A stretch of 40,256 bases of DNA from Hyphomicrobiales bacterium (lineage in GTDB: Bacteria; Pseudomonadota; Alphaproteobacteria; Rhizobiales; Rhizobiaceae): positions 1 to 40,256 of the forward strand of contig DUSC01000211.1 in NCBI GenBank assembly GCA_012842935.1, read 5' to 3'. Positions 24,559 through 39,394 of this stretch are shown here, one piece after another (the stretch's first letter is position 1; each line of letters starts with the position of its first letter). Under the pieces are notes generated by a model. It was given only the letters and a program-made list of their open reading frames with translations, was not told the DNA's origin and made no database searches. The translations under genes and the position numbers were made by a program.

Positions 24559-26124
24559 TCAGCACTTCCGTCCCCAGCCTCCGCCTCTGGCTGTATGGAT
24601 CAGGATCTCGTCGCTCGGCTCGACAACCGCGCCGGAGACGAAGGCGTGATCCTCGCGGCGGCCGTCGCGGCGCAGGATCGACAGGCCGTTCGTGCCGCCC
24701 GCGCTGCCCCCGGCCGAGCCCCAGACGGGCATGCGGTTGCGGCTGTAGCCGGCCGAAAGCACGACGCGGCTGCGCGGCCGATAGCTGACGTCGAGCCCGC
24801 GCCCGCCCGAATGAAGTCCCGCGCCCTCGCCGCCCTCGCCCAGCCGCTTGTAGCCGACCTCGATGCCGTAGCGGGCCTCGCAGATCTCGACCGGGCAGTT
24901 GAAGGTCTCGCCGTGCGAGGTCGAGTACATGGCGTCGAGGCCGTCGCGGGTCGCGGTCGCGCCCCAGCCGCCCATCTGCGGCTCGACCATGGTGAAACGG
25001 CGGCCGGTGTCCGGGTGGTCGCCGGCGATCACCGTGCCGCAGATCGAGGCGAAATGGCCCGCGGGCAACCGCTCCGGCATGGCGCGGGCCATGCAGCGCC
25101 AGAGCATGTCGTAGAGGCGGATGCGCGTCTCGAAATAGTAGCCGTGCGGCGCCGTTCCCTCGGCGTGGAAGATCGTTCCGGGCTCGGTGACCACCTCCAG
25201 CGCTCGGAACGAGCCGGCATTTGCGAACAGCGTCGGGTCGGTCAGCGCCTTGAAGATCATCTGGCAGGAGATCACGGCGCCGTCGCGGCTGGTGTTGTAG
25301 GGCGCCGCGCGCTGCCCTGGATTACCGGTCAGGTCGACGCGGAAGCGGTCAGCGGAGATGTCGATGCGCGCCCGCCACAGGGCGCCGTCGTCCTGCTCCT
25401 CCTCGATCTCGTATGAACCCTGCGGCAGGGCGGCGAGCCCGGCGCGGCCGCGCTTCTCGCCCTCGGCGAAGAGGTCGGCGAGCGCGGCTTCGTAGGCTTC
25501 GACCCCATAGGCCGCGACCAGCTGGCGGATGCGTGTTTCGGCCTTGCGGCCGGCGGCGACCTGCGCCCATAGGTCGCCGCGGACGAAGTCGGGCAGGCGC
25601 GAGTTGGCCATGATGATGTCGAAGACCGCGTCGATCGGCCGCCCGCCCTCGAACAGCTTCACTGCCGGCAGGCGCAGTCCTTCCTGGAAGATTTCCGACA
25701 CGTCGACCGCCATCGAGCCGGGCGTCTTGCCGCCGACGTCGTTCCAGTGGGCGATCGAAGCCGCCCAGGCAACGCAACGCCCTTCGGCGAACACCGGTTG
25801 GGCGATGACGACGTCGTTCAGGTGGGTGACGCCGCCATAGTAGGGATCGTTGGTGACGAAGCAGTCGCCGTCGCGGATGGCCTCGATCCCGTGGATGCCG
25901 ACGATACGCTTCACCGCCTTGTCGAGCACGCCGACGAAGGTCGGGATGCCGGCGCCGGAGCTGACCAACTCGCCGCGCGCGTCGGTGATGCCGGTGCCAA
26001 CGTCGAGCACCTCGTAGATGATCGGGCTCATCGCCGTCTTCTTCAGCACCGCGAACATCTCGTCGGCTGCCGCGACCAGCGCCGACTGGATGACGGATGT
26101 CGTGAAGAGGTCGGCGGAGGTCAT
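24559..26124 (-). CDS. Hydantoinase B/oxoprolinase family protein (HyuB-like)
   Basis: AADEMFAVLKKTAMSPIIYEVLDVGTGITDARGELVSSGAGIPTFVGVLDKAV, FVTNDPYYGGVTHLNDVVIAQPVF, MVEPQMGGWGATATRDGLDAMYSTSHGETFNCPVEICEARYGIEV. Confidence 0.92.
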   Translation of the reverse strand: MTSADLFTTSVIQSALVAAADEMFAVLKKTAMSPIIYEVLDVGTGITDARGELVSSGAGIPTFVGVLDKAVKRIVGIHGIEAIRDGDCFVTNDPYYGGVTHLNDVVIAQPVFAEGRCVAWAASIAHWNDVGGKTPGSMAVDVSEIFQEGLRLPAVKLFEGGRPIDAVFDIIMANSRLPDFVRGDLWAQVAAGRKAETRIRQLVAAYGVEAYEAALADLFAEGEKRGRAGLAALPQGSYEIEEEQDDGALWRARIDISADRFRVDLTGNPGQRAAPYNTSRDGAVISCQMIFKALTDPTLFANAGSFRALEVVTEPGTIFHAEGTAPHGYYFETRIRLYDMLWRCMARAMPERLPAGHFASICGTVIAGDHPDTGRRFTMVEPQMGGWGATATRDGLDAMYSTSHGETFNCPVEICEARYGIEVGYKRLGEGGEGAGLHSGGRGLDVSYRPRSRVVLSAGYSRNRMPVWGSAGGSAGGTNGLSILRRDGRREDHAFVSGAVVEPSDEILIHTARGGGWGRKC

Positions 26125-26126
26125 GA

Positions 26127-27227
26127 TCAGGTCCGCGCCACGTAGAGGTCGCGCGGCAGGGACGACAGGATCTCCGGCCCGTCCTCGCGCAGGATGACGA
26201 TCTCCTCGAGGCGGATACCGAACCGGCCGGGCAGGTAGATGCCGGGCTCGATGGAGAAGACCATGCCTTCCTCGAGCACGGTCTCGGACGCCGAGGTGAT
26301 GTAGGGCGGCTCGTGGCCGTCGATGCCCATGCCGTGGCCGGTACGGTGGACGAAGAACTCGCCGTAGCCGGCGTCGGCAATCACGCTGCGCGCGGCGGCG
26401 TCGACGTCGCGGGCGCGCACGCCGGGCCGCGCCGCTTTCAGCGCCGCCTGCACCGCCTTCTCGACGATGGTGTGGACCTGGCCGTAGCCCTCCGGCGGAC
26501 GGCCGACCACGGCCATGCGGGTGATGTCGCTCGGGAAGCCCGCCTTGCGGCCGCCGATGTCGATGACAACCGCATCGCCCTCCTCCAGCCGGCGCTGGCC
26601 CGTCTGGTGATGCGGGAAGGCGCCGTTGCCGCCCGCGCCGACGATCCAGAAGGCCGGCGTCGCGCCTTCCGAGGCGAAATGGTCCCTGATGATGCCCGCA
26701 AGCTCGAGCTCGGTCATGCCCGGCCGGATCGAGGCGAACGCCTTCTGCATGGCGCGGTCGGCGATGCCGGCATTCATCTTGAGTTTGGCATATTCCACCG
26801 GATCCTTGCGCATGCGCAACGCGCCGAGCGTCTCGCCGGTGAACACGTGCCTGGCGTCCGGCAGCATGCCGAGCAGGAGCAGGGCGAAGTCGGCGCGCAT
26901 GGTCTCGTCGAGCGCGACCTTCGTCACCGCCTGTGTCTCGATGTCGGCGAGTGCGGCGGCGAGCGCGGCTTCAGGTCCCTCGGCGTCTGCCCAGGTGAAG
27001 AAGGAGATGTCGGTCGCTTCGCGCGTACCTTCCGCGTTGAGTACCGGCATCAGGAACGTCTCCTTGCGCTCGCCGACGAGCAGCAGGCAGGGCCGCTCGT
27101 CGGGATGCGGGTGGAATCCGAGCAGCCAGTCCATGTGCGATCCGGGCGCCACGGCGACGAGGCCGGTGCCGGTTTCTCTCATCTTGCCGCGCAGGCGGGT
27201 AAGGCGATCGGCGGTGGGGTGCGTCAT
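26127..27227 (-). CDS. M24 family metallopeptidase (Xaa-Pro aminopeptidase/creatinase-like)
   Basis: HHQTGQRRLEEGDAVVIDIGGRKAGFPSDITRMAVVGRP, FFVHRTGHGMGIDGHEPPYI, LEEGMVFSIEPGIYLPGRFGIRLEEIVIL. Confidence 0.92.
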   Translation of the reverse strand: MTHPTADRLTRLRGKMRETGTGLVAVAPGSHMDWLLGFHPHPDERPCLLLVGERKETFLMPVLNAEGTREATDISFFTWADAEGPEAALAAALADIETQAVTKVALDETMRADFALLLLGMLPDARHVFTGETLGALRMRKDPVEYAKLKMNAGIADRAMQKAFASIRPGMTELELAGIIRDHFASEGATPAFWIVGAGGNGAFPHHQTGQRRLEEGDAVVIDIGGRKAGFPSDITRMAVVGRPPEGYGQVHTIVEKAVQAALKAARPGVRARDVDAAARSVIADAGYGEFFVHRTGHGMGIDGHEPPYITSASETVLEEGMVFSIEPGIYLPGRFGIRLEEIVILREDGPEILSSLPRDLYVART

Positions 27228-27318
27228 GGGGGCCTCGTCTTTGATCTCTGTTTTTTTGGCGGCGAAGCTGCGACGTCTCCCGGATGCCGCGCCTTCGACG
27301 AATGGATAGGTCTACGTC

Positions 27319-28131
27319 CTAGGCTGCCTCGACAACGATCCGGCTGCCGAACGGCTCGTTGGTATCGAACTGACCGAAGCGAGCGATCTCGTCTTCCGGC
27401 GGCGCCTCGCAGGACCACTTGCGGCTCGGCTTCCAGCCGCACTGGCGGCGCAGAACCGCGGCATACTCGGCCCGCTTCAGCGCCGCGATCGACGGGTCGA
27501 TGACCGGCACGCCGAGCCGTTCCTCAACGTCCCTGTAGAATCCGACCTCCATGGTGCAGCCGAGGATGAGAGCTTCGGCGAAGTCCTCCTCGACCGCCTT
27601 GCGGCCGGCCTCGATCAGCCGCCGCTCGGTTTCGGCGTGGTCCTTCTGGAAGTCGTTGACGCCGAGCTCGACGTGGTAGAACCCCGACAGCCGGTGTTCG
27701 TGGCCGTGCTCGCGCACGGTCGAGCTCATCTGGTGGACCCACTTGCGCCGGCCCACGATGATGCCGAAACGGTTCGACAGGCTGGCGGCGATCTCGCAGG
27801 AGGCGACGCAGGGTGCGGTGACGATCATGCCTTCCGAGACCTCGCGCGCATCGTGCAGCCCGGTGTCGTAGAAGCAGCCGATTGCCAGCGCGTCGAAGCC
27901 CTCACGGGCCGCAGCGCGCGTGGCGCGGATGATGCCGCGCGTCACCATCGCCTCGTAGGAGCGGTATTCGATATGCGTGAAGCCGCCCTCCTCGGCCGGC
28001 AGCGAAGTGACGTGCACCTCGGTGCCCGGCATCTTGTGCTCGGCCGCCATTCTGGCGAATACCGGATCGTAGGCCCCGACATGGGAGACGGGGCTGAGAT
28101 ACATGATTTTCAGCGGCTTTTCGCGCGACAT
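27319..28131 (-). CDS. Aspartate/glutamate (hydantoin) racemase family protein
   Basis: ALAIGCFYDTGLHDAREVSEGMIVTAPCVASCEIAASL; EALILGCTMEVGFYRDVEERLGVPVIDPSIAALKRAEYAAVL, two catalytic-type Cys contexts. Confidence 0.85.
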   Translation of the reverse strand: MSREKPLKIMYLSPVSHVGAYDPVFARMAAEHKMPGTEVHVTSLPAEEGGFTHIEYRSYEAMVTRGIIRATRAAAREGFDALAIGCFYDTGLHDAREVSEGMIVTAPCVASCEIAASLSNRFGIIVGRRKWVHQMSSTVREHGHEHRLSGFYHVELGVNDFQKDHAETERRLIEAGRKAVEEDFAEALILGCTMEVGFYRDVEERLGVPVIDPSIAALKRAEYAAVLRRQCGWKPSRKWSCEAPPEDEIARFGQFDTNEPFGSRIVVEAA

Positions 28132-28168
28132 GGTCGTATTCTCCTGTTCGCTTCGTCCTTGGCGGAAC

Positions 28169-29833
28169 TCAGCCGGTGTAGCCGTAGACCTCGCGCGCCC
28201 GCTCCGGCGTGATCAGCCCATTGCGGATGTCCTCCGCCACCAGGGCTCGGTCCCGCTCCTTCGGATCGCCGAGGCCGCCGCCCGTGCCGGTGACGACGCG
28301 GATGACGTCGCCCGTGTGGGTGGTAAGGCCGGAGACGAAGGAAAAGCGCTTGTCGGTGCCGTCCCTGCCGAGATAGCGGATGTAGTTGGGCGAGCCTTCG
28401 CGGCCTCCGTCGAGTGCCCAGGGCGGGAACTTCGAGCGGGTGTAACCGGCGGTAAGGAAGCCGTTGTCACCGCGGATGCGGTAGTCCATGACGATGCCGC
28501 GCCCCCCGGCGAACTTGCCCTCACCGCCGGGCTCGGTGTTCAGTTCCATGCGGTCGACGTAGAGGCCGTTGCGCGCCTCGTTGATCTCGGCGGGGCAGTT
28601 GTAGGTTTCGCCATGGAAACCGCAGAAGATCGCCGAATTTCCGTCGCGGCCGCGGGATGCGCCCCAGCCGCCGATCTGCGGCTCGATGATCGTGTACTGG
28701 CGGCCGGTGTCGGGGTGAATGCCGCCGATGAAGGTTCCGCACACCGAGGCGAAGTGCCCGGCGGCGAGCCGGTCGGGCATGTGCGGCGCCAGGCAGCGCC
28801 ACATCAGGTCGTAAACACGCAGCTCGATCTCGTAGTAGAAGCCGATCGGCGCCGGCTCCTTGGCGTGGAACACCGAGCCCTCGCGGGTGAGCAGGCGGAT
28901 CGGCCGGAACGAACCCTCGTTGGCCGGCGAGTACGGATCCGTCAATGACTTGAAGATCATCTGGGCCGCGACCATGACCCCGTCGCGGCTGGTGTTGACC
29001 GGATTCGTCGACTGGTCGGGATTGTCGCGCAGGTCGACGGTGAATTCGGTGTCGGAAATCGTGATCTTGACGTTGAAGGTGCGGCCGTCGTCCTGCTCCT
29101 CGGAGAGTTCGAACGTGCCCTTGGGCAGGTTCGCCAACTCCTTCAGCGAGACCTGCTCGCCATAGTCGAGGAACGAGGCCATGGCGTTGGCGAAGGTGCC
29201 GACCCCGTACTTCTCGGCGATCTCGACGAGGCGCCGCGCGCCGATGCGAACCGAGGCGATCGCTGCCCAGACGTCGCCTTCGAGCACGTCGGGCATGCGC
29301 GAATTGACCTTGATGATCTCCATCACCGGGCGGATCGGCTCGCCCCTTGAAATGATCTTGATGGCCGGCAGGCGCAGTCCCTCTTGGAAAATCTCGGTCG
29401 CCTCGCCGGTCAGCGAACCGGGCGCCATGCCGCCGACGTCGGAGTTGTGGGCGATGTTGGCCGTCCAGGCGATGATGCGGTCGCCGGCGAAGACGGGCAT
29501 GGCCACCACGATGTCGTTCAGATGGGTGACGCCGCCGTAATAAGGATCGTTGGTGGCGAAGACGTCGCCGGGCTCGATGTCGCCGGGCTTGCCGAACTTT
29601 GCGACGATCACCTTCACAGCCTTGTCGAGCACGCCGATGAAGGCCGGGATGCCGGCACCCGACGACGCGAGCGCGCCCCTTGCGTCGGTGATGCCGGTGC
29701 CCATGTCGAGCACCTCGTAGATGATCGAGCTCATCGCCGTCTTCTTCATGACGGCGAACATCTCGTCGGCGGTCGCCTGCAGCGAGTTCTGGATGATCTC
29801 CAGCGTGATCGGGTCGTTGGACATGTCGGTCAT
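28169..29833 (-). CDS. Hydantoinase B/oxoprolinase family protein, second HyuB paralog
   Basis: Start MTDMSNDPITLEIIQNSLQATADEMFAVMKKTAMSSIIYEVLDMGTGITDARGALASSGAGIPAFIGVLDKAV; FATNDPYYGGVTHLNDIVVAMPVF; IIEPQIGGWGASRGRDGNSAIFCGFHGETYNCPAEINEARNGLYVD. Confidence 0.92.
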   Translation of the reverse strand: MTDMSNDPITLEIIQNSLQATADEMFAVMKKTAMSSIIYEVLDMGTGITDARGALASSGAGIPAFIGVLDKAVKVIVAKFGKPGDIEPGDVFATNDPYYGGVTHLNDIVVAMPVFAGDRIIAWTANIAHNSDVGGMAPGSLTGEATEIFQEGLRLPAIKIISRGEPIRPVMEIIKVNSRMPDVLEGDVWAAIASVRIGARRLVEIAEKYGVGTFANAMASFLDYGEQVSLKELANLPKGTFELSEEQDDGRTFNVKITISDTEFTVDLRDNPDQSTNPVNTSRDGVMVAAQMIFKSLTDPYSPANEGSFRPIRLLTREGSVFHAKEPAPIGFYYEIELRVYDLMWRCLAPHMPDRLAAGHFASVCGTFIGGIHPDTGRQYTIIEPQIGGWGASRGRDGNSAIFCGFHGETYNCPAEINEARNGLYVDRMELNTEPGGEGKFAGGRGIVMDYRIRGDNGFLTAGYTRSKFPPWALDGGREGSPNYIRYLGRDGTDKRFSFVSGLTTHTGDVIRVVTGTGGGLGDPKERDRALVAEDIRNGLITPERAREVYGYTG

Positions 29834-29843
29834 GACGTTCACC

Positions 29844-31919
29844 TCAGGCCGCGAGATGGATGTGGATGTTGCCGTAGCCGTCGACCTCGACACGGTTGCC
29901 CGGATGGATGACGACGGTCGTGCCCGGATCCTCGACGATCGCCGGGCCGACAAACGTCATGCCCGGCTCGAGTTTCGTGCCGTCGTAGATCGCCGCGCGC
30001 CGGACGCCTTCCAGCGCGTAGTCGACGTCACGATAGCCCTTCAGCGCGACCTCGGCTGCGGCACCGGTCGCCGCGCGCTTCTTCATGGTCAGCTTACCGA
30101 CCTCCGCCGAGGCGACGAGGTGGATGCCGACCATCTCGACGGGGGCGTGGAGCCGGTAGGTGTATTCGCGCTCGTAGGTGTCGTGGAACGCCGCCTCGAT
30201 CTCGGCGAGGCGCGCGTCGGTGACCGCGCCCTCGGCGATCAACACCTCGGTGGTGTGCTCCTGGTTCTGGTAGCGGAACTTGCCGTAGCGCAGGAAGCGG
30301 ATCTTCGCCGGGTCGACACCTTCCGCCGTGAACTGGGCGCGGGCTCGCTCCTCGCTCTCGGCGAAGACCGCCTCGATGCCGGCCGCCGCGCCCTTCTTCA
30401 GGTCGGCCAGCCGCGTGACGAAATAGTCGCGGCGCAGGTCCGACATCATCATGCCCCAGGCCGAGAACACCGAGGCGCCGGCGGGCACGACGACCTTCCT
30501 GACGCCGAGCTCGGCCGCCAGGGCCACCGCGTGCATGGCGCCGCCGCCGCCGAAGGCGACCAGGGTGAAGTCGCGCGGATCATGGCCGCGGTTGAGCGAG
30601 ACCAGCTTCAGCGCGTTGACCATGTTGTTGTTGGCGATGCGGACGATACCGCGCGCCGCCTCGTCGGCATCGACGCCCAGCTTCTCGCCGACCGCCCTGA
30701 TCGCCTTGCCGGCCGCCTCCATGTCGGCGACGATCTCGCCGCCGCAGAAATAGTCGCGGTTGATGCGGCCGAGCCAGAGGTTGGCGTCGGTCGTCGTCGC
30801 CCTGTCGCCGCCGCGGCCGTAGGCGGCCGGGCCGGGCATGGCGCCGGCCGATTGCGGGCCGACGTGGAGCTTGCCGAAATCGTCGACCCAGGCGATCGAG
30901 CCGCCGCCATTGCCGATCTCGACCAGGTCGACCACCGGGACCATGATCGGATAGCCGGCCGAGGTGCGGTCGCGCTCGATCCAGTAATCGGTCTTGATCT
31001 TCACCTCGCCGTTCTCGACCAGCGAACACTTGGCCGTGGTGCCGCCGATATCGAGGGCGAGCACGTTGGGCTCGCCGATCAGCTTGCCGAGCTCGGCCGC
31101 GCCCCAGAAGCCCGACGCGGGACCGGACTCGACCATGGTGATCGGGATCCGCGACACGGACTCGAGCGAATCGACGCCGCAGTTGGACTGCATGATGTAG
31201 GGACTGCCCTTGAAGCCCTTTTCCTTGAGGCCGCCAGCGAGGCGCGACAGGTAGCGCTGCGCGATCGGCTGGACGTAGGCCGAGAGCACCGCGGTGTTGG
31301 TACGCTCGTATTCGCGCCACTCGCGGGTGATCTGGTGAGAAGAAACGACCGAAACGCCCGGCCAAAGGCGCTCGACCTCGGCAAGGGCGGCCTGCTCGTG
31401 GCTGGTGTTGGCGTAGGAGTGCAGGAAGCAGATGGCGATCGCCTCGACGCCCTCCCGGCGGAAATCGTCGAGGATCGCCGGGAGGCCGGAGAGGTCGAGC
31501 GGCTTCAGGACCTCGCCCTTGTAGGAAACGCGGCCTGGCAGCTCGCGGCGCAGGTAGCGCGGCACGAAGGGCTTCGGCTTCTCGTAGTGCAGGTTGAAGA
31601 AGTCGGGACGGTTGCCGCGGGCGATCTCCAGCGTATCGCGGAAACCCTCGGTGGTGATCAGGCCGACCTTGACGCCCTTGCGCTCGGTCAGCGCGTTGAT
31701 GACGACGGTGGTGCCGTGGGCGAGGAAGTCGACGGTCGCCGGGTCGACGCCGCCCTTTTCCAGCACGTTGAGCACGCCCTGCTCGAAGTTCGGCGGCGTG
31801 GTGTCGGATTTCGCCGTGACGATGCGCGACTCGCCCGTCGTCCGGTCGGTCTCGAAGCAGACAAGGTCGGTGAAGGTGCCGCCGACGTCGGTCGCGACAC
31901 GGATCGTCTTGTTCGCCAT
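29844..31919 (-). CDS. Hydantoinase A/oxoprolinase family protein (HyuA-like)
   Basis: RVATDVGGTFTDLVCFETDRTTGESRIVTAKSDTTPPNFEQGVLNVL, DFLAHGTTVVINALTERKGVKVGLITTEGFRDTLEI, VLALDIGGTTAKCSLVENGEVKIKTDY. Confidence 0.94.
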   Translation of the reverse strand: MANKTIRVATDVGGTFTDLVCFETDRTTGESRIVTAKSDTTPPNFEQGVLNVLEKGGVDPATVDFLAHGTTVVINALTERKGVKVGLITTEGFRDTLEIARGNRPDFFNLHYEKPKPFVPRYLRRELPGRVSYKGEVLKPLDLSGLPAILDDFRREGVEAIAICFLHSYANTSHEQAALAEVERLWPGVSVVSSHQITREWREYERTNTAVLSAYVQPIAQRYLSRLAGGLKEKGFKGSPYIMQSNCGVDSLESVSRIPITMVESGPASGFWGAAELGKLIGEPNVLALDIGGTTAKCSLVENGEVKIKTDYWIERDRTSAGYPIMVPVVDLVEIGNGGGSIAWVDDFGKLHVGPQSAGAMPGPAAYGRGGDRATTTDANLWLGRINRDYFCGGEIVADMEAAGKAIRAVGEKLGVDADEAARGIVRIANNNMVNALKLVSLNRGHDPRDFTLVAFGGGGAMHAVALAAELGVRKVVVPAGASVFSAWGMMMSDLRRDYFVTRLADLKKGAAAGIEAVFAESEERARAQFTAEGVDPAKIRFLRYGKFRYQNQEHTTEVLIAEGAVTDARLAEIEAAFHDTYEREYTYRLHAPVEMVGIHLVASAEVGKLTMKKRAATGAAAEVALKGYRDVDYALEGVRRAAIYDGTKLEPGMTFVGPAIVEDPGTTVVIHPGNRVEVDGYGNIHIHLAA

Positions 31920-32422
31920 CACAGGCCTCCCCGGGCGTTGAGTTCGTTGAGCAGAAGGTAGACGGCGCCGGGCAGCTTCAGCGCCTCGGCGGCCTCGACC
32001 CTCTCGGGCGTGTAGTAGCCGGCCTCGTGGAGGCAGTTGATGGTTCCGAGCACGGCGCCGCCGACGACGATCGGCACGTTGATGACGCTCTCGCAGCCGA
32101 GAGACCGGATCAGCTCATGGTCGGAGAAGACGGCAGCGATGCCCTCTATGTCGTTGGCGACGAAAGTGCGCTTCTCGCGGATGACCTGCCGCGACCAGTC
32201 GGTCTCGTTGGCGGGCTTGGTGCCGGAGACGGGATAGGCGTCGGGCATGTTGGAGTAGATGCGGCTGGCGACGCCCTTCTTGCCGTCATGGGCCATGACG
32301 GTGAACAGCTTGACGCCGACGACGTCGCGGGTCAGCGCCCACAGCGCGTCGAACGCCTGCTCGGGCAGTCTGTCGCCGTCCGCGACGGCCCTGGTGAACG
32401 CGGTATAGTCAGGCATTTGCAT
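31919..32422 (-). CDS. Stand-alone GAF domain protein
   Basis: 167 aa; WALTRDVVGVKLFTVMAHDG...FVANDIEGIAAVFSDHELIRSLGCESVINVPIVVGGAVLGTINCLHEAGYYTPERVEAAEAL, a GAF fold with no fused output domain. Confidence 0.82.
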   Translation of the reverse strand: MQMPDYTAFTRAVADGDRLPEQAFDALWALTRDVVGVKLFTVMAHDGKKGVASRIYSNMPDAYPVSGTKPANETDWSRQVIREKRTFVANDIEGIAAVFSDHELIRSLGCESVINVPIVVGGAVLGTINCLHEAGYYTPERVEAAEALKLPGAVYLLLNELNARGGL

Positions 32423-33224
32423 CGGTCTTCTCCATGAGCCGGTTGCGCAGTTCCGCCTCGCCGGCGGTGACGACCGGGACGGCGCCGATCAGCCGGCGCG
32501 TGTAGGGGTGTTTCGGGTCGGCGAAGATCGCCTCGGTCGGCGAGAGCTCGACGAGCCTGCCTTTCTCGAACACGGCGACGCGGGTCGCCACGTTGCGCAC
32601 CACGGACAGGTCGTGCGTGATGAAGATGTAGGTCAGGCCGCGCTTCTCGCGCAGTTCGTTGAGCAGCTTCAGCACGCGCGCCTGGACGAGCACGTCGAGA
32701 GCGGAGGTCGGCTCGTCGAGCACGACCAGCTCCGATTGGCAGGCGAGTGCGCGGGCGATCGCGACGCGCTGGCGCTGCCCGCCGGAAAGCGCGGCCGGCG
32801 AGCGGGTGCGGAAGGCGGCCGGCAGGCCGACCTCCTCGAGAAGCTGGCCGGTGCGCTCGTCGCGGCCGGACCTCTCGCCGATCTCGTGGACGTCGAGGGC
32901 GAGTCTCAGCGAGGCGCCGATCGAGCGGCGCGGGTTGAGCGACGACAGCGGATTCTGCTGCACCAGCTGGATGGCGCGGCGATGGACGAGGTCGCGCCTT
33001 CCCGGCAGGGCACTGCCCTTGAAGGCGATCTCGCCCAACGTCTGCGGATAGATGCCGAGGATCATGTTCGCGACTGTCGACTTGCCCGAGCCGCTTTCGC
33101 CGACGATCGCCAGGCACTCGCCTTCGTCGACGTCGAAGGAGACGCCGTCGACGGCGCGCACCTCGCGGCCTCCGGTATGGAAGGTCTTCGACACGTCGCG
33201 AAGCGAAAGGAAGGGGTGGCTCAT
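32409..33224 (-). CDS. Peptide-type ABC transporter ATP-binding protein (DppF-like)
   Basis: IVGESGSGKSTVANMILGIYPQ, AALSGGQRQRVAIARALACQSELVVLDEPTSALDVLVQARVLKLL, PKHPYTRRLIGAVP. Confidence 0.92.
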   Translation of the reverse strand: MSHPFLSLRDVSKTFHTGGREVRAVDGVSFDVDEGECLAIVGESGSGKSTVANMILGIYPQTLGEIAFKGSALPGRRDLVHRRAIQLVQQNPLSSLNPRRSIGASLRLALDVHEIGERSGRDERTGQLLEEVGLPAAFRTRSPAALSGGQRQRVAIARALACQSELVVLDEPTSALDVLVQARVLKLLNELREKRGLTYIFITHDLSVVRNVATRVAVFEKGRLVELSPTEAIFADPKHPYTRRLIGAVPVVTAGEAELRNRLMEKTDANA

Positions 33225-34114
33225 GCGGGCACCCCTTCCGGTTCGCCGAAGCCCTCGTGGACGACGAGCGGGGCGAAATATTCTTCCGACGCGTCCTCGA
33301 TGTCGGGGATGCCGCCACCGGTGATGCGCGGCACGGCGCTGAGCAACGCACGCGTATAGGGATGACGCGGGTCTTCGAACAGGGCGGCCGTCGGCCCCTG
33401 CTCGGCGATCCGACCCTTGTAGATGACGTAGACGCGGTCGGCGAACTCGCGCACGACGCCGAGATTGTGCGAGATGAACAGCACCGAGGTGCCGTGGCGG
33501 GCGACGAGGTCGCGCATCAGCCCGAGCGTCTGCGCCTGCACGGTGACGTCGAGCGCCGTTCCCGGCTCGTCGGCGATCAACAGCGACGGCTCGTTGGCCA
33601 GCGCCATGGCGATCATGACACGCTGGTTCATGCCGCCGGAGAGCTGAAAGGAATAGGAATCGAGCACCCGCTCGGGCTCGCCGATGGCGACATCGGCGAG
33701 CGCGGCCGCGGCCCTGCGACGCGCCCCGGCGAGGTCGAGGCCCGGCTCGGCGCGCTTCAGCACCTCGTGGAACTGGGTGGCGATCGTGTAGACCGGGTTG
33801 AGCGAGGAGGTCGGATCCTGGAAGATCATCGACATCCGCGTGCCGCGCAGCGCATGGCGCTCGCGCCCGGAAAGGCGCGACAGGTCGCGTCCCTCGAACG
33901 CGACGAGGCCGGAGATGCGGGCACTCTTCAGGTTCTGCAGCAGGCCGAGCACGATGCGCGCCGTGACCGACTTGCCTGAACCGCTTTCGCCGACCAGCGC
34001 GACGCGCTCGCCCCTGGCGATGTGCAGCGAGATGCCGTGGAGGACCTCGATGAGGCCGGAATAGCCGCGGAAGCCGAGACGCAGGTCGCGGATGAGCAGC
34101 GTCGGCGCGGTCAT
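33221..34114 (-). CDS. Peptide-type ABC transporter ATP-binding protein (DppD-like)
   Basis: Start MTAPTLLIRDLRLGF at 34114; ALVGESGSGKSVTARIVLGLL, SGGMNQRVMIAMALANEPSLLIADEPGTALDVTVQAQ, PRHPYTRALLSAVPRI. Confidence 0.92.
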   Translation of the reverse strand: MTAPTLLIRDLRLGFRGYSGLIEVLHGISLHIARGERVALVGESGSGKSVTARIVLGLLQNLKSARISGLVAFEGRDLSRLSGRERHALRGTRMSMIFQDPTSSLNPVYTIATQFHEVLKRAEPGLDLAGARRRAAAALADVAIGEPERVLDSYSFQLSGGMNQRVMIAMALANEPSLLIADEPGTALDVTVQAQTLGLMRDLVARHGTSVLFISHNLGVVREFADRVYVIYKGRIAEQGPTAALFEDPRHPYTRALLSAVPRITGGGIPDIEDASEEYFAPLVVHEGFGEPEGVPA

Positions 34115-34944
34115 TGCTCGGCTCCCAGCACTTCGCGCAGCGCGTCGCCGACGAGATTGAAGCCGAACACCGCGACCAGGATGGCGAGGCCGGGAAAGAC
34201 CGTCAGCCACCAGGAATCGGGCAGGTATTTCGCTCCGTCGGCTACCATCGAGCCGAGGTCCGGCGTCGGCGGCTGGACGCCGAGACCCAGGAAGGAGAGC
34301 GAGGAGGCGATCAGGATGACGAAGCCGAGGTCGAGCGTCATCTTGGTGACGATCGACGGCACGCAGTTGGGCAGGATCTCGCGGAACATGACGTGCAGCC
34401 GCGAGGCGCCGATGATTTCCGCGGCGAGCACGTAGCCCTCCTCCTTCTCGGCGCGCGTCAGGTTGTAGACGAGGCGCGTGTACCAGGGCCACCACATGGC
34501 GGTGACCGCGATCATGCCGTTGGTCAGCGTCGGCTCGAGCACGCCCATCATCGACATGGCGAGCACCAGCGGCGGGATCGACAGGAAGACGTCGGTCAGC
34601 CGCATCAGCAGATACTCGGTCCAGCCGCCGAGATAGCCGGCGAGAAGACCGATGGCGACGCCCACCGGCACGGCGAGCACCAGCACGACGACGCCGAGGA
34701 TGAGCGAGATGCGGTAGGCGTAGACGATGCGGGTGAAGAGATCGCGGCCGACCAGGTCGGTGCCCATGACGTAGGGCCATTCCGGCGCCTTGTTGAAGTT
34801 GGCGAAGTCGACCACGGCGCCGGCATGCGCCGGGAACGGCGTGATGAAGTCGGCGAAGACGGCCGACAGAACGACGACGGCGACGATGACGAGGCCGAGC
34901 AGCGACAGCGGGTTGCGCAGGAGGATCGCGAACGTGCGCTTCAT
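34111..34944 (-). CDS. Peptide-type ABC transporter permease (DppC-like)
   Basis: 277 aa; HAGAVVDFANFNKAPEWPYVMGTDLVGRDLFTRIVYAYRISLILGVV; EEGYVLAAEIIGASRLHVMFREILPNCVPSIVTKMT. Confidence 0.92.
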   Translation of the reverse strand: MKRTFAILLRNPLSLLGLVIVAVVVLSAVFADFITPFPAHAGAVVDFANFNKAPEWPYVMGTDLVGRDLFTRIVYAYRISLILGVVVLVLAVPVGVAIGLLAGYLGGWTEYLLMRLTDVFLSIPPLVLAMSMMGVLEPTLTNGMIAVTAMWWPWYTRLVYNLTRAEKEEGYVLAAEIIGASRLHVMFREILPNCVPSIVTKMTLDLGFVILIASSLSFLGLGVQPPTPDLGSMVADGAKYLPDSWWLTVFPGLAILVAVFGFNLVGDALREVLGAEQ

Positions 34945-35966
34945 GACGCCCTCTGCGAATAGCGGATGCGCGGGTTGATGAAGGCGATCAGCAGGTCGAC
35001 GATCACGTTGACGATGAGGAACATCGCGGAGATGATCAGCACCGTGCCGACGATGGCGTTGAGATCCTTGCGCAGGATGACGGCGACGCCGTATCGCGAC
35101 AGGCCCGGCCAGGCGAAGACCGCCTCGACCAGGAAGGCGTTGCCGAGCATGGCGGCGAAGTCGAGGCCGATGATGGTCAGCGACGGGATCATCGAGGGGC
35201 GGAAAGCGTAGCGGCCGGCGATGCGCCGCTCGGGGAAGCCGTAGGACTGCGCCATCTCGATGTACGGCTTGTCGTAGGTCTCGACCATGTTGGAGCGCGT
35301 CAGTCGCGCCGCCTGGCCGATGCCGGAGAGCGCCAGCGCGAAGGCCGGCAGCACGATGTGCCAGGCGGCGTTGGAGAAGGCGCGCAGGTCGCCGGCGAGC
35401 AGCGTGTCGATCATCAGGAAGCCGGTGACCGTCCGGATCGTCATCGTGTCGGAGATGCGCCCGGCGATCGGGAAGAGGGGCAGGAAATAGGCGAAGGCGA
35501 GCATCAGGATCACCGCCCAGACGAAGGCGGGAGCCGACACGCCGAGCAGGGTGACGAGGCGGACGAGGTTGTCGATCCAGCTGTTGCGGTAGCGCGCGGA
35601 AAGGATGCCGAGCGGCAGGCCAATGACCACCATCATCACGCCGGAGACAAGCACCAGTTCCAGCGTCGCCGGGAGGAACTGGGCGATGTCCGTGGTGACG
35701 GGCCGGTTTGTGTAGAGCGAGACACCGAGATCGCCGCGCAGCAGGTCGGCGACGAACCGGCCGTACTGGACGACGATCGGCTGGTCGAGATTCAACCGCT
35801 CGCGCAGTGCCGCCACCTGATCTGCCGAGGCGTTCGGCCCGAGCGCGATGCGCGCCGGATCGCCGGGGATGACCCGGGCGATGGCGAAGATGAGCATGGA
35901 GACTCCGATCAGAACGACCAAAGACGTCCCAAGCCGCTTCGCGAGGAGGCGGACGACAGGCGGCAT
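34941..35966 (-). CDS. Peptide-type ABC transporter permease (DppB-like)
   Basis: 341 aa; RVIPGDPARIALGPNASADQVAALRERLNLDQPIVVQYGRFVADLLRGDLGVSLYTNRPVTTDI; LVEAVFAWPGLSRYGVAVILRKDLNAIVGTVLI. Confidence 0.92.
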   Translation of the reverse strand: MPPVVRLLAKRLGTSLVVLIGVSMLIFAIARVIPGDPARIALGPNASADQVAALRERLNLDQPIVVQYGRFVADLLRGDLGVSLYTNRPVTTDIAQFLPATLELVLVSGVMMVVIGLPLGILSARYRNSWIDNLVRLVTLLGVSAPAFVWAVILMLAFAYFLPLFPIAGRISDTMTIRTVTGFLMIDTLLAGDLRAFSNAAWHIVLPAFALALSGIGQAARLTRSNMVETYDKPYIEMAQSYGFPERRIAGRYAFRPSMIPSLTIIGLDFAAMLGNAFLVEAVFAWPGLSRYGVAVILRKDLNAIVGTVLIISAMFLIVNVIVDLLIAFINPRIRYSQRAS

Positions 35967-36036: not shown

Positions 36037-37629
36037 CTACTCGTTCATCTCCATCAGCCGGAAGCTGAAGCCCATGCCGTTCAGGCTGAAGCCCTTGGAC
36101 GGATCGGACAGCGCCGGCACTGAAACGCGCTTGCTCGCCGCGAAGACGCCGGTCTGGTCGTAGGCATAGATGCTCGGCTGCAGTTCGCGCAGGCGCTTGC
36201 TCACCTCGGTATAGGCGGCGGCGCGCTCCTCCTGCGAGGTCACGGTGCGGCCCTTGTCGAGGAGTTCGTCGACCTTGGAGTCCTTCAGGTATTCCGGCGA
36301 CTGCCAGGTTCCCGCCGCCGATGAGTGGTACATGCCGTAGATCAGCGTGTCCGGATCGCCGGTGACGGCATTGACGAAGACCTGGCTGATGTTCGGCGTG
36401 TTCTCGGGCTTCGTCACCATCTCGGTGAACAGCGCCCACGGCACCTTCTTCACTTCGGACTTGATGCCGATCTCGGCGAAATTGGCCTGCATCAGCAGCG
36501 CGAAGCGCTCTTCCAGCGGCACCTCGCCGATCCACGAAAGTTCGACCGTGAAGTCCTTGTACCGGCACTCGGACAGGTATTTCCTCGCTGCGTCGAGGTC
36601 GCGCTTGTACGCCTCGGAGGCGGGCAGCGAGCCGAGCATGCCGACCGGGAGCGGGCCGGAGGCCGGGCTGCCCTGCGAGACGGTGTCGGTGATCGCCACC
36701 ATCTTGATCGCGGCGTCGTAGTCGAAGGCATTGGCGACCGCGAGGCGGCAGTTCAGATCGTCGAACGGCGGCTTGGCGGTGTTCATCTTGATGTAGAAGC
36801 CGGCGCCGCCCGACTCGGTTAGCAGTTGCGCGCCTTCCGCGGCGAGCGACTTCAGCACTTCCGGCGGCAGCCACTGCGAGGAGATGTCGTGCTCGCCCTG
36901 CGCGATCAGCGTGCGCACGGTCGCCGCCTCGAGGCCGTAGCGGTAGCGCACGACGTCCGGGGCCTTCGCCGGCACGCCGAGGAAGTAGTCGGGATTCTTG
37001 GCCAGCACCGTCTCCTGCTGGGGATTGTGCGAGACCACCTTGTAGGCGCCCGTGCCGGCGCCGTTTGTCGACAGGAAGGCCTGGCCCCAGTCCTTCATCT
37101 CGCCGTCGCCCTCGCCGAGATTGGCCATGACCAGCTTCTTGTCGACGATCGGCAGGCGCAGCAGCGCCGAAAGGAATGGCGAATAGGGAGCGGACAGGGT
37201 GAACCTGACCGTCGAGCCGTCGACGGCTTCGGCGCCCTTCACGCCGGCGAACAGGTAGGAGAGACCCTGCCCGAGCGCCTTCATTCGGTCGAGCGAGAAG
37301 ACGACGTCCTCGGCGGTGAGCGGGTTGCCGCTCTGGAACTTCACGTCGCCGCGGAGCTCGAACGTGTAGGTAGTGCCGTCGGTTTCCCAGCTCTCGGCGA
37401 GATGCGGGACGACGCCGCCGCTGCCCTGGGCGGCGAGCACCAGCGTGTCGTAGACGTTGAACATCAGCACCGAGTCGGCATAGTCGGTCGCCTTGGCCGG
37501 ATCGAGTTCGCCGACGGCGACTTCGTCGACGCGGAGGACGGTTTCGGCGAGCGCGGGGCTGGCGAGATGCGCGGTCAGCGCCGTCCCGGCAAGCAGCGCG
37601 GCAGCTAGCGATTTCATCAAAGGTTTCAT
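36037..37629 (-). CDS. Peptide-type ABC transporter substrate-binding protein (SBP family 5)
   Basis: Start MKPLMKSLAAALLAGTALTAHLASPALAETVLRVD (signal peptide); HLAESWETDGTTYTFELRGDVKFQSGNPLTAEDVVFSLDRMK. Confidence 0.92.
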   Translation of the reverse strand: MKPLMKSLAAALLAGTALTAHLASPALAETVLRVDEVAVGELDPAKATDYADSVLMFNVYDTLVLAAQGSGGVVPHLAESWETDGTTYTFELRGDVKFQSGNPLTAEDVVFSLDRMKALGQGLSYLFAGVKGAEAVDGSTVRFTLSAPYSPFLSALLRLPIVDKKLVMANLGEGDGEMKDWGQAFLSTNGAGTGAYKVVSHNPQQETVLAKNPDYFLGVPAKAPDVVRYRYGLEAATVRTLIAQGEHDISSQWLPPEVLKSLAAEGAQLLTESGGAGFYIKMNTAKPPFDDLNCRLAVANAFDYDAAIKMVAITDTVSQGSPASGPLPVGMLGSLPASEAYKRDLDAARKYLSECRYKDFTVELSWIGEVPLEERFALLMQANFAEIGIKSEVKKVPWALFTEMVTKPENTPNISQVFVNAVTGDPDTLIYGMYHSSAAGTWQSPEYLKDSKVDELLDKGRTVTSQEERAAAYTEVSKRLRELQPSIYAYDQTGVFAASKRVSVPALSDPSKGFSLNGMGFSFRLMEMNE

Positions 37630-38312
37630 GACGACTTCCCCTTCTTTGTCTTCAGTGGCTTGGGTAGGCTCTTGAGCCGGGCGTTCCGGCGAACGGCCAT
37701 GCTCGTCCCGGCTGTCCCGGCGGACGGCCCGTCGCCGAAGACGTCCATCGTGCAGGTATGCAGGATGGTCGCCGGTCGATCGGTGTGGTTCCACGTGGAG
37801 TGGACGCGCGTCGACGGGAAATGCAGGGAATCGCCCGCCTCGAGCACGATCTCCTCGCCGTCGACTTCCACGGTGATGGCGCCGTCGAGGATGAAGAAGA
37901 TCTCCTCTCCCTCATGCGAGATCGGCTCGGAGCGATGCCCGGGCGGCTCGTGGATGAGCACGCTGCGCAGCACGTTGCCGGGGAAGGTCGTCGACAGGCG
38001 CTCGTAGGTGAGAGAGGCGCCGCCGATCGCGTAATGCGGGCGTTCGGCGTGGCGTGTCATCGGTGCCGTCACCTTGGGCTGCTCCAGGAAATCGCCGACA
38101 TTCGCGCCGAGCACGCGCGCCACGGCGACCAGGGACGACAATGATGGCGTGGTGATGCCGCGCTCGATCTGCGAGATGAAACCGACGGAGAGGCCTGCCC
38201 GGTCGGCGACTTCCTGGAGCGTCAGCCCGAGGTCGCGGCGGCGCTGGCGAAGACGGTCGCCGAGGGGCTCGTAGCCGCCGGGCTGAACCGCCTGCTGCGC
38301 CGCGCTGTCCAC
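37626..38312 (-). CDS. XRE-family HTH transcriptional regulator with C-terminal cupin domain
   Basis: LGDRLRQRRRDLGLTLQEVADRAGLSVGFISQIERGITTPSLSSLVAVARVLG; cupin EPISHEGEEIFFILDGAITVEVDGEEIVLEAGDSLHFPSTRVHSTWN; GTG at 38312 is 5 nt from GGAGG (track uses GTG at 38318). Confidence 0.92.
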   Translation of the reverse strand: MDSAAQQAVQPGGYEPLGDRLRQRRRDLGLTLQEVADRAGLSVGFISQIERGITTPSLSSLVAVARVLGANVGDFLEQPKVTAPMTRHAERPHYAIGGASLTYERLSTTFPGNVLRSVLIHEPPGHRSEPISHEGEEIFFILDGAITVEVDGEEIVLEAGDSLHFPSTRVHSTWNHTDRPATILHTCTMDVFGDGPSAGTAGTSMAVRRNARLKSLPKPLKTKKGKSS

Positions 38313-38323
38313 TGGCACCTCCG

Positions 38324-38340
38324 TTTTAGTATTGGTAAAA
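38324..38340 (-). promoter_or_regulatory. Operator-like site 1 upstream of XRE-cupin gene
   Basis: TTTTAGTATTGGTAAAA on + strand; TTTTA-N7-TAAAA dyad; overlaps the putative -10/start region of the leftward promoter. Confidence 0.6.
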
Positions 38341-38341
38341 A

Positions 38342-38370
38342 AATCTTGCCCATCGGCGCCGCCGAGTCAA
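38342..38370 (-). promoter_or_regulatory. Candidate promoter between the two operator-like sites
   Basis: On - strand TTGACT (38370-38365), 17-bp spacer, AAGATT (38347-38342); -10 match is weak. Confidence 0.4.
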
Positions 38371-38376
38371 TCGCTT

Positions 38377-38393
38377 TTTTACAAATACTAAAA
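38377..38393 (-). promoter_or_regulatory. Operator-like site 2 upstream of XRE-cupin gene
   Basis: TTTTACAAATACTAAAA, reverse complement TTTTAGTATTTGTAAAA; 16 of 17 bases identical to site 1 in inverted orientation. Confidence 0.6.
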
Positions 38394-38423: not shown

Positions 38424-38450
38424 CGGCGCCGCGGCGAGGTCGCGGCGCCG
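38424..38450 (-). terminator. Stem-loop downstream of the BKACE gene (terminator-like, no U-tract)
   Basis: CGGCGCCGCG-gcgaggt-CGCGGCGCCG, perfect 10-bp stem directly after the BKACE stop. Confidence 0.4.
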
Positions 38451-38461
38451 GAACGGACGGA

Positions 38462-39394
38462 TCAGAAGTTGACCTGATCGCCGCCCTTGAGGCTGAGGAT
38501 TTCGCGTGCTTCAGCCGGCGTCGCGATCTCGAGGCCGAGGCCCTCGACCATGCGCCGGGCCATCGTGACCTGTTCCGCGTTGCTGGCCGCCAGGCGCCCC
38601 TTGCCAGCCCATATCGAATCCTCGAGACCGACGCGGAGATTTCCGCCCATCAGCACCGACTGCATGGCGATCGGCATCTGGTTGCGGCCGGCGCCAAGAA
38701 CGGACCAGCGATAGGCGTCGCCGAACAGGCGGTCGGCGGTACGCTTCATGTGCATGACGTCTTCCGGGTGGGGACCGATGCCGCCAAGAATCCCGAACAC
38801 GCTCTGGATGAAGAAGGGCGGCTTGATGAGGCCCCGATCGACGAAATGGGCGCAGGTGTAGAGGTGGCCGATGTCATAGCACTCGATTTCGAAGCGCGTG
38901 CCGTTGTCGGCGCAGCGCGTCAGGATCGTCTCGATGTCGGCGAAGGTGTTGCGGAAGATGCGGCCGCGCGACCCTTCGAGGTAGGGGCGCTCCCAGTCGT
39001 GCTTGAAATCCTTGAAACGCTCTAGCATCGGGTAGAGGCCGAAGTTCATCGAGCCCATGTTGAGCGAGGCGACCTCCGGCTTGAAGTGCAGCGCCGGCGC
39101 CAGGCGTTCCTCGATGCTCATCGTCGCGGCACCGCCGGTGGTGATGTTGACGACGCAGTCGACGCGCTGCTTGATCACGCCGAGGAACGGCCGGAACGCC
39201 TCCAGCGATTGATCGGGCTCGCCGGTGTCCGGCTTGCGGGCGTGGAGATGGACGATCGCGGCGCCCGCTTCTGCCGCGCCGATCGCCGCCTCGGCGATCT
39301 CGGCGGCGGTCACCGGCAGGTGCGGTGACATCGACGGCGTATGAATCGAGCCGGTCACGGCACAGGTGATGATGACTTTCCGCGATGCTGCCAC
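38462..39394 (-). CDS. 3-keto-5-aminohexanoate cleavage enzyme family (BKACE/DUF849)
   Basis: KVIITCAVTGSIHTPSMSPHLPVTAAEIAEAAIGAAEAGAAIVHLHARKPDTGEPDQSLEAF; SLNMGSMNFGLYPML; RVGLEDSIWAGKGRLAASNAEQV. Confidence 0.93.
   Translation of the reverse strand: MAASRKVIITCAVTGSIHTPSMSPHLPVTAAEIAEAAIGAAEAGAAIVHLHARKPDTGEPDQSLEAFRPFLGVIKQRVDCVVNITTGGAATMSIEERLAPALHFKPEVASLNMGSMNFGLYPMLERFKDFKHDWERPYLEGSRGRIFRNTFADIETILTRCADNGTRFEIECYDIGHLYTCAHFVDRGLIKPPFFIQSVFGILGGIGPHPEDVMHMKRTADRLFGDAYRWSVLGAGRNQMPIAMQSVLMGGNLRVGLEDSIWAGKGRLAASNAEQVTMARRMVEGLGLEIATPAEAREILSLKGGDQVNF

What the first reader, a model, noticed from the sequence alone, without database searches (positions are those of the whole stretch)
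38324..38393. Twin operator-like palindromes bracket the promoter of the XRE-cupin-led operon
TTTTAGTATT(G/T)GTAAAA occurs twice in inverted orientation (16/17 identical), each with a TTTTA-N7-TAAAA dyad, centres 53 bp apart (about five helical turns). A TTGACT-17-AAGATT promoter candidate lies between and under them. Strongly AT-rich in a GC-rich window. Suggests autoregulation, possibly with looping or cooperative binding.
Basis: partly seen in the sequence, partly recalled or inferred. Interest (0 to 1): 0.6.

Follow-up and report, generated by a model that had tools for sequence, protein, structure and literature searches.

The report
Paired repressor sites around metabolic promoter
Two near-identical DNA palindromes bracket the promoter of a regulator gene that leads a nutrient uptake and breakdown operon, and they are very probably the landing sites through which that regulator shuts off its own operon: a well-conserved but ordinary kind of bacterial switch.

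Summary
Two palindromes (38324-38340, 38377-38393; 53 bp apart) bracket a promoter driving an XRE-cupin regulator, an Opp-type ABC transporter and HyuA/HyuB-like hydrolases. They are the only exact matches to TTTTA(G/C)-N5-(C/G)TAAAA in the held 4.0-Mb genome.

Of 88 XRE-cupin loci, window included, 84 carry TTTTAG-N5-CTAAAA in their own promoter: all those above 46% identity. In 60, two sites lie 46-53 bp apart with TTGAC between them (60 of 60); 6 have abutting sites, 18 a single site. Only one comparable match lies elsewhere in 961 kb. One further relative (L145) shows the same symmetric half-site change in both sites. The layout matches the published operator of the Pseudomonas XRE-cupin PsdR (TTAAG-N5-CTTAA).

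Best reading: two dimer operators, one just upstream of -35 and one over the predicted start site, for autorepression by promoter occlusion, relieved by an unknown cupin ligand. Helically phased looping is not supported: the spacing varies over 7 bp without compensation. A paralogous XRE-cupin promoter in the same genome has its own private pair of related sites. New member of a known kind; nothing was tested at the bench.

The parts
38377..38393 (-). Operator site 1 (just upstream of -35): TTTTAGTATTTGTAAAA on the coding strand
   Evidence: site 1 columns TTTTAG/CTAAAA nearly invariant in 60 twin-site loci, central 5 bp variable
38365..38370 (-). -35 element TTGACT
   Evidence: TTGAC between the two sites in 60 of 60 twin-site loci, 3-8 bp after site 1
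38342..38347 (-). Candidate -10 element AAGATT (weak match; 17-bp spacer)
   Evidence: sequence; 3 of 6 consensus bases; not flagged; position fits the weakly conserved columns before site 2
38324..38340 (-). Operator site 2 over the predicted transcription start (about 38334-38336): TTTTACCAATACTAAAA on the coding strand
   Evidence: its centre (AATA) is conserved in site 2 but not in site 1, as expected if it also holds the start site (inference)
37626..38318 (-). XRE-cupin regulator gene (HTH_3 + Cupin_2); real start probably GTG at 38312, after GGAGG at 38322-38318
   Evidence: Pfam; start inferred from Shine-Dalgarno spacing and from the relative L003, which lacks the first GTG
36037..37629 (-). 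Solute-binding protein family 5; ATGA overlap with the regulator's stop codon
   Evidence: Pfam SBP_bac_5; sequence
32409..35966 (-). Opp/Dpp-type permeases and ATPases of the operon
   Evidence: synteny in most orthologous loci
24559..32422 (-). GAF protein, HyuA- and HyuB-like subunits, Asp/Glu-racemase-superfamily protein, M24 peptidase, second HyuB-like subunit: rest of the putative operon
   Evidence: best NCBIfam models for HyuA/HyuB are caprolactamase alpha/beta, below cut-off
38424..38450 (-). GC-rich hairpin (10-bp stem, 7-nt loop, no U run) after the upstream BKACE gene, perhaps separating the two transcription units
   Evidence: not flagged as terminator

Best explanation
[quoted passage not shown] Each binds one dimer through TTTTAG-type half-sites separated by 5 bp. 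The downstream site covers the predicted transcription start and the edge of -10; the upstream site ends a few bases before -35, so the pair sandwiches the core promoter. Without inducer the dimers keep RNA polymerase off and hold the regulator, the Opp-type transporter and the hydrolase genes low. A small molecule related to the transported substrate, bound by the cupin domain, would release them. Shown by sequence: the sites, their geometry around a conserved -35, conservation with the regulator gene, near-absence elsewhere. Inferred: that this regulator binds them, repression rather than activation, start-site position, ligand.
For: 84 of 88 XRE-cupin loci have the motif in their own promoter; 109 strong hits in 29.9 kb of promoter against 1 in 961 kb elsewhere. 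The motif stays with the regulator when it is followed by an M24 gene and no transporter (L040, L041, L046, L049, L050). In L145 both sites show the same symmetric half-site change TTATAG/CTATAA. Relatives under 47% identity lack the motif. TTGAC lies between the sites in 60 of 60. Only these two exact sites exist in the own genome. PsdR operator TTAAG-N5-CTTAA (PMC10965056); XRE-cupins are dimeric core-promoter repressors (PMC7901475).
Against: No binding or expression data. The -10 element is weak. Eleven Ensifer/Sinorhizobium-type relatives keep only the upstream site, which is less obviously repressive. The paralogue on contig C190 has a nearly identical recognition helix, so it could bind too.
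Confidence: 0.85

Rival explanations
1. Same operators, but the upstream site is an activator site (dual regulator): the liganded dimer at about -50 helps polymerase while site 2 represses.
For: The upstream site is the better conserved of the two; 11 relatives retain only that site.
Against: The gap between site 1 and -35 varies 3-8 bp, about half a helical turn, unlike contact activation; 7 relatives keep only the start-site operator and 6 have both sites downstream of -35; the P. aeruginosa family members with determined regulons all repress (PMC7901475).
Confidence: 0.1
2. The two sites hold a DNA loop or helically phased tetramer across the promoter, as the first reader suggested (a variant of the best explanation, not exclusive of it).
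For: 53 bp is close to five turns in the window; 54 of 60 twin-site loci lie at 49-53 bp.
Against: Range 46-53 bp with no compensation between the two gaps (r=+0.16); 17-bp tandem and single-site relatives; a 50-bp loop is stiff (general knowledge).
Confidence: 0.1
3. The palindromes are sites of another regulator, global or encoded elsewhere, for example the paralogous XRE-cupin on contig C190.
For: The paralogue has a nearly identical recognition helix and its own promoter carries related sites TTGAGG-N5-CTAAAA.
Against: A global regulator would have more than one promoter per genome; here the refined motif is private. The motif stays with this gene through many genomes and gene orders. Additional cross-binding by the paralogue is not excluded.
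Confidence: 0.04
4. The inverted pair forms an RNA hairpin or attenuator.
For: Arms 38324-38342 and 38375-38393 are 18/19 complementary.
Against: Site 1 lies upstream of the predicted start; central bases of the two sites are not complementary in orthologues (44% inverted versus 41% direct).
Confidence: 0.01

Closest known systems
PsdR (Pseudomonas aeruginosa XRE-cupin repressor of mdpA and dppA3)
   Same: XRE-cupin domain order; operator with 5-bp centre and AT-rich arms (TTAAG-N5-CTTAA against TTTAG-N5-CTAAA); regulates Dpp/Opp-type uptake and a peptidase next to it
   Different: PsdR's two sites surround its gene and serve two promoters, and lasR is a further target; here both sites lie in one promoter. 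Half-sites differ; the operon here adds HyuA/HyuB-like hydrolases
Other Pseudomonas XRE-cupin repressors (ErfA, PauR, PA1884, PA4987)
   Same: local repressors in core promoters of uptake and processing genes; palindromic operators where determined
   Different: different targets and pathways; their operator sequences were not compared here
PuuR (E. coli)
   Same: XRE-cupin architecture; weak similarity to NCBIfam NF007408 (68.7 bits)
   Different: far below the equivalog cut-off of 211 bits

Membership tests
XRE-cupin transcriptional regulators | N-terminal Cro/C1-type HTH followed by C-terminal cupin | tested here: met
   HTH_3 residues 23-73 and Cupin_2 residues 122-187, both above cut-off
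XRE-cupin transcriptional regulators | palindromic operator in the core promoter of its own or neighbouring metabolic genes | tested here: met
   84 of 88 loci, around TTGAC; by sequence only
XRE-cupin transcriptional regulators | binds as dimer and represses | not testable with these tools
   needs EMSA, footprint, mutant
PuuR orthologue | reaches NCBIfam NF007408 cut-off (211 bits) | tested here: not met
   68.7 bits
PsdR-type operator | TTAAG-N5-CTTAA | tested here: not met
   same N5 layout, half-site TTTTAG instead
Helically phased DNA-looping operator pair (AraC/GalR-like) | spacing held in helical phase across orthologues | tested here: not met
   46-53 bp, uncompensated

The most novel reading that the evidence does not exclude
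A family of XRE-cupin regulators in Rhizobiales and relatives in which a two-operator sandwich (start-site operator plus upstream operator at about -50) has repeatedly changed arrangement (50-bp twin, abutting 17-bp, single upstream, single start-site) while the half-site stayed fixed, with the upstream site acting as an activator site when ligand is bound, so that one dimer type switches the promoter both ways.
Probability: 0.1. Interest if true: 0.45.

Novelty: new member of a known kind. Interest (0 to 1): 0.3.

Why it matters
It assigns a specific operator (TTTTAG-N5-CTAAAA) and a mostly single-promoter regulon to a widespread Rhizobiales XRE-cupin regulator that controls an Opp-type transporter with HyuA/HyuB-like hydrolases of unknown substrate. 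That gives a direct way to find the ligand: test candidate lactams, hydantoins or peptides for release of the protein from this DNA.

Tried and rejected
Helical phasing: tested by gap compensation and not supported. Conserved inverted orientation: rejected. Larger regulon: the extra exact sites looked at in G020 (L131) and G061 (L132) lie among genes unrelated to the operon; treated as chance. One extra site in the AT-rich genome G067 lies about 80 bp before an Opp-type permease gene (32% identical to permB), with TTTGAC after the site; that genome's XRE locus (L077) lacks the transporter, so this could be a remote target, but chance matches are common in that genome (8 control hits); left open. 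Paralogue on C190: no TTTTAG-N5-CTAAAA dyad, but a private pair of TTGAGG-N5-CTAAAA sites. Literature searches for the motif or this regulator found nothing. Structure prediction was not run: a monomer model would not decide operator binding.

Full report
OBSERVATION. No dinucleotide shuffle of the window gives a match at up to 3 mismatches. In the held assembly (4.03 Mb, 310 contigs, about 89% complete) these are the only matches at up to 3 mismatches. The refined pattern TTTTAS-N5-STAAAA also matches exactly only here, with one 1-mismatch site elsewhere. Raw counts per genome are close to those of the reversed control pattern in several genomes, so the weight of the evidence is location, not number.

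SETTING. On the minus strand the sites lie upstream of an XRE-cupin gene (HTH_3 + Cupin_2). Its stop overlaps the start of an SBP family 5 gene (ATGA), followed by two permeases, two ATPases, a GAF protein, HyuA- and HyuB-like subunits, an Asp/Glu-racemase-superfamily protein, an M24 peptidase and a second HyuB-like subunit. The best NCBIfam models for the HyuA/HyuB proteins are caprolactamase subunits, well below cut-off, so the substrate is unknown. The first GTG of the called ORF overlaps the Shine-Dalgarno GGAGG and is absent from the sister-species locus L003; the start is more likely GTG at 38312 (inference).

COMPARATIVE TEST. Of 88 XRE-cupin loci including the window (80 from genome contigs; the rest from whole genomes; duplicate loci removed, some near relatives remain), 84 carry the dyad in the 320 bp before the gene. 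Sites scoring at least 11 of 12 occur 109 times in 29.9 kb of those promoters and once in 961 kb of the other sequence of the same loci. The four without it are 40-46% identical to the query (L091-L094). Seven relatives above 50% identity from a later draw (L140-L146) all have two sites 45-52 bp apart; three of these (L140-L142) look like copies or close kin of loci already counted. L145 changes both half-sites of both sites symmetrically, to TTATAG/CTATAA, as expected for a dimer operator. Relatives at 42-47% identity (L147-L150) lack the dyad and have instead a TTTTGCTTATATCAAAA-like element, so the specificity changes outside this group.

GEOMETRY. In 60 loci two sites lie 46-53 bp apart (15 at 50, 15 at 51, 10 at 53), and TTGAC lies between them in all 60, 3-8 bp after site 1 and 25-30 bp before site 2. 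With the rhizobial consensus CTTGAC-N17-CTATAT (PMC2873474), site 2 covers about -7 to +10 and site 1 about -57 to -41 (inference). The central bases of site 2 (AATA) are conserved while those of site 1 are not, which fits a start site inside site 2 (inference). In the window TTGACT is 38370-38365 and AAGATT 38347-38342.

OTHER ARRANGEMENTS. Six relatives have two abutting sites (17 bp) downstream of -35, eleven Ensifer/Sinorhizobium-type relatives keep only the upstream site and seven keep only the start-site one. On the regulator tree these arrangements need about 11 changes, so the layout is evolvable while the half-site is fixed. The motif stays with regulators that lead only an M24 gene, so it belongs to the regulator, not to the transporter operon.

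LOOPING. If helical phase mattered, the gap from site 1 to -35 and that from -35 to site 2 should compensate. They do not (r=+0.16; total variance larger than the sum of the parts; 90% of permutations are no more variable). Related sequences are not independent, so this is a modest test, but together with the single-site and tandem relatives it removes the basis for phased looping.

MECHANISM. Published XRE-cupin proteins of P. aeruginosa are dimeric, local repressors acting in core promoters (PMC7901475); PsdR, which controls peptide uptake and a dipeptidase, binds TTAAG-N5-CTTAA (PMC10965056). The operator here has the same N5 layout. Promoter occlusion with release by a cupin-bound metabolite is therefore the most likely mechanism (0.85). 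Activation from site 1 (0.10) and binding by another regulator (0.04) are less likely.

PARALOGUE. The genome has a second, 52% identical XRE-cupin gene leading a 69% identical SBP gene on contig C190. Its recognition helix is nearly the same. A pattern allowing the variant half-site (TTKANG-N5-CTAAAA) finds exactly two places in the genome, both in that promoter, 31 bp apart, in inverted orientation around TTGACA. Whether the two systems cross-talk is open.

NOVELTY. No paper on this motif or regulator was found in the open-access library; subscription literature and the RegPrecise database itself were not searched. The kind of system is well known; the operator and its distribution appear not to have been described in what could be read here.

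Noticed in passing
own genome G000:C190:6057-6104 (in L135, L151): Second XRE-cupin + SBP5 cluster with its own private pair of TTGAGG-N5-CTAAAA sites 31 bp apart around TTGACA; nearly identical recognition helix, so cross-talk is possible.
   Followed up: partly
window 38462-39394: BKACE gene upstream meets the NCBIfam equivalog 3,5-dioxohexanoate:acetyl-CoA acetone transferase (551 bits, cut-off 430); among the fetched loci it is next to the regulator only in the same-genus locus L003/L084, so it is probably not part of the conserved operon.
   Followed up: partly
window 24559-31922: HyuA plus two HyuB-like subunits, with an Asp/Glu-racemase-superfamily protein and an M24 peptidase: a lactam/hydantoin-type catabolic set of unknown substrate.
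   Followed up: partly
L133:1912-1928 (genome of L077): A perfect TTTTAG-N5-CTAAAA site about 80 bp before an Opp-type permease gene, in a genome whose XRE-cupin locus lacks the transporter: possible remote target of the regulator, or chance in an AT-rich genome.
   Followed up: partly
L072: Contig labelled Acidimicrobiales carries an operon and regulator that group with Alphaproteobacteria: mis-binning or horizontal transfer.
   Followed up: no
L147-L150: More distant XRE-cupin relatives (42-47%) share a TTTTGCTTATATCAAAA-like element instead: a different operator specificity.
   Followed up: no
window 38424-38450: Perfect 10-bp GC hairpin without a U run just after the BKACE stop codon.
   Followed up: partly
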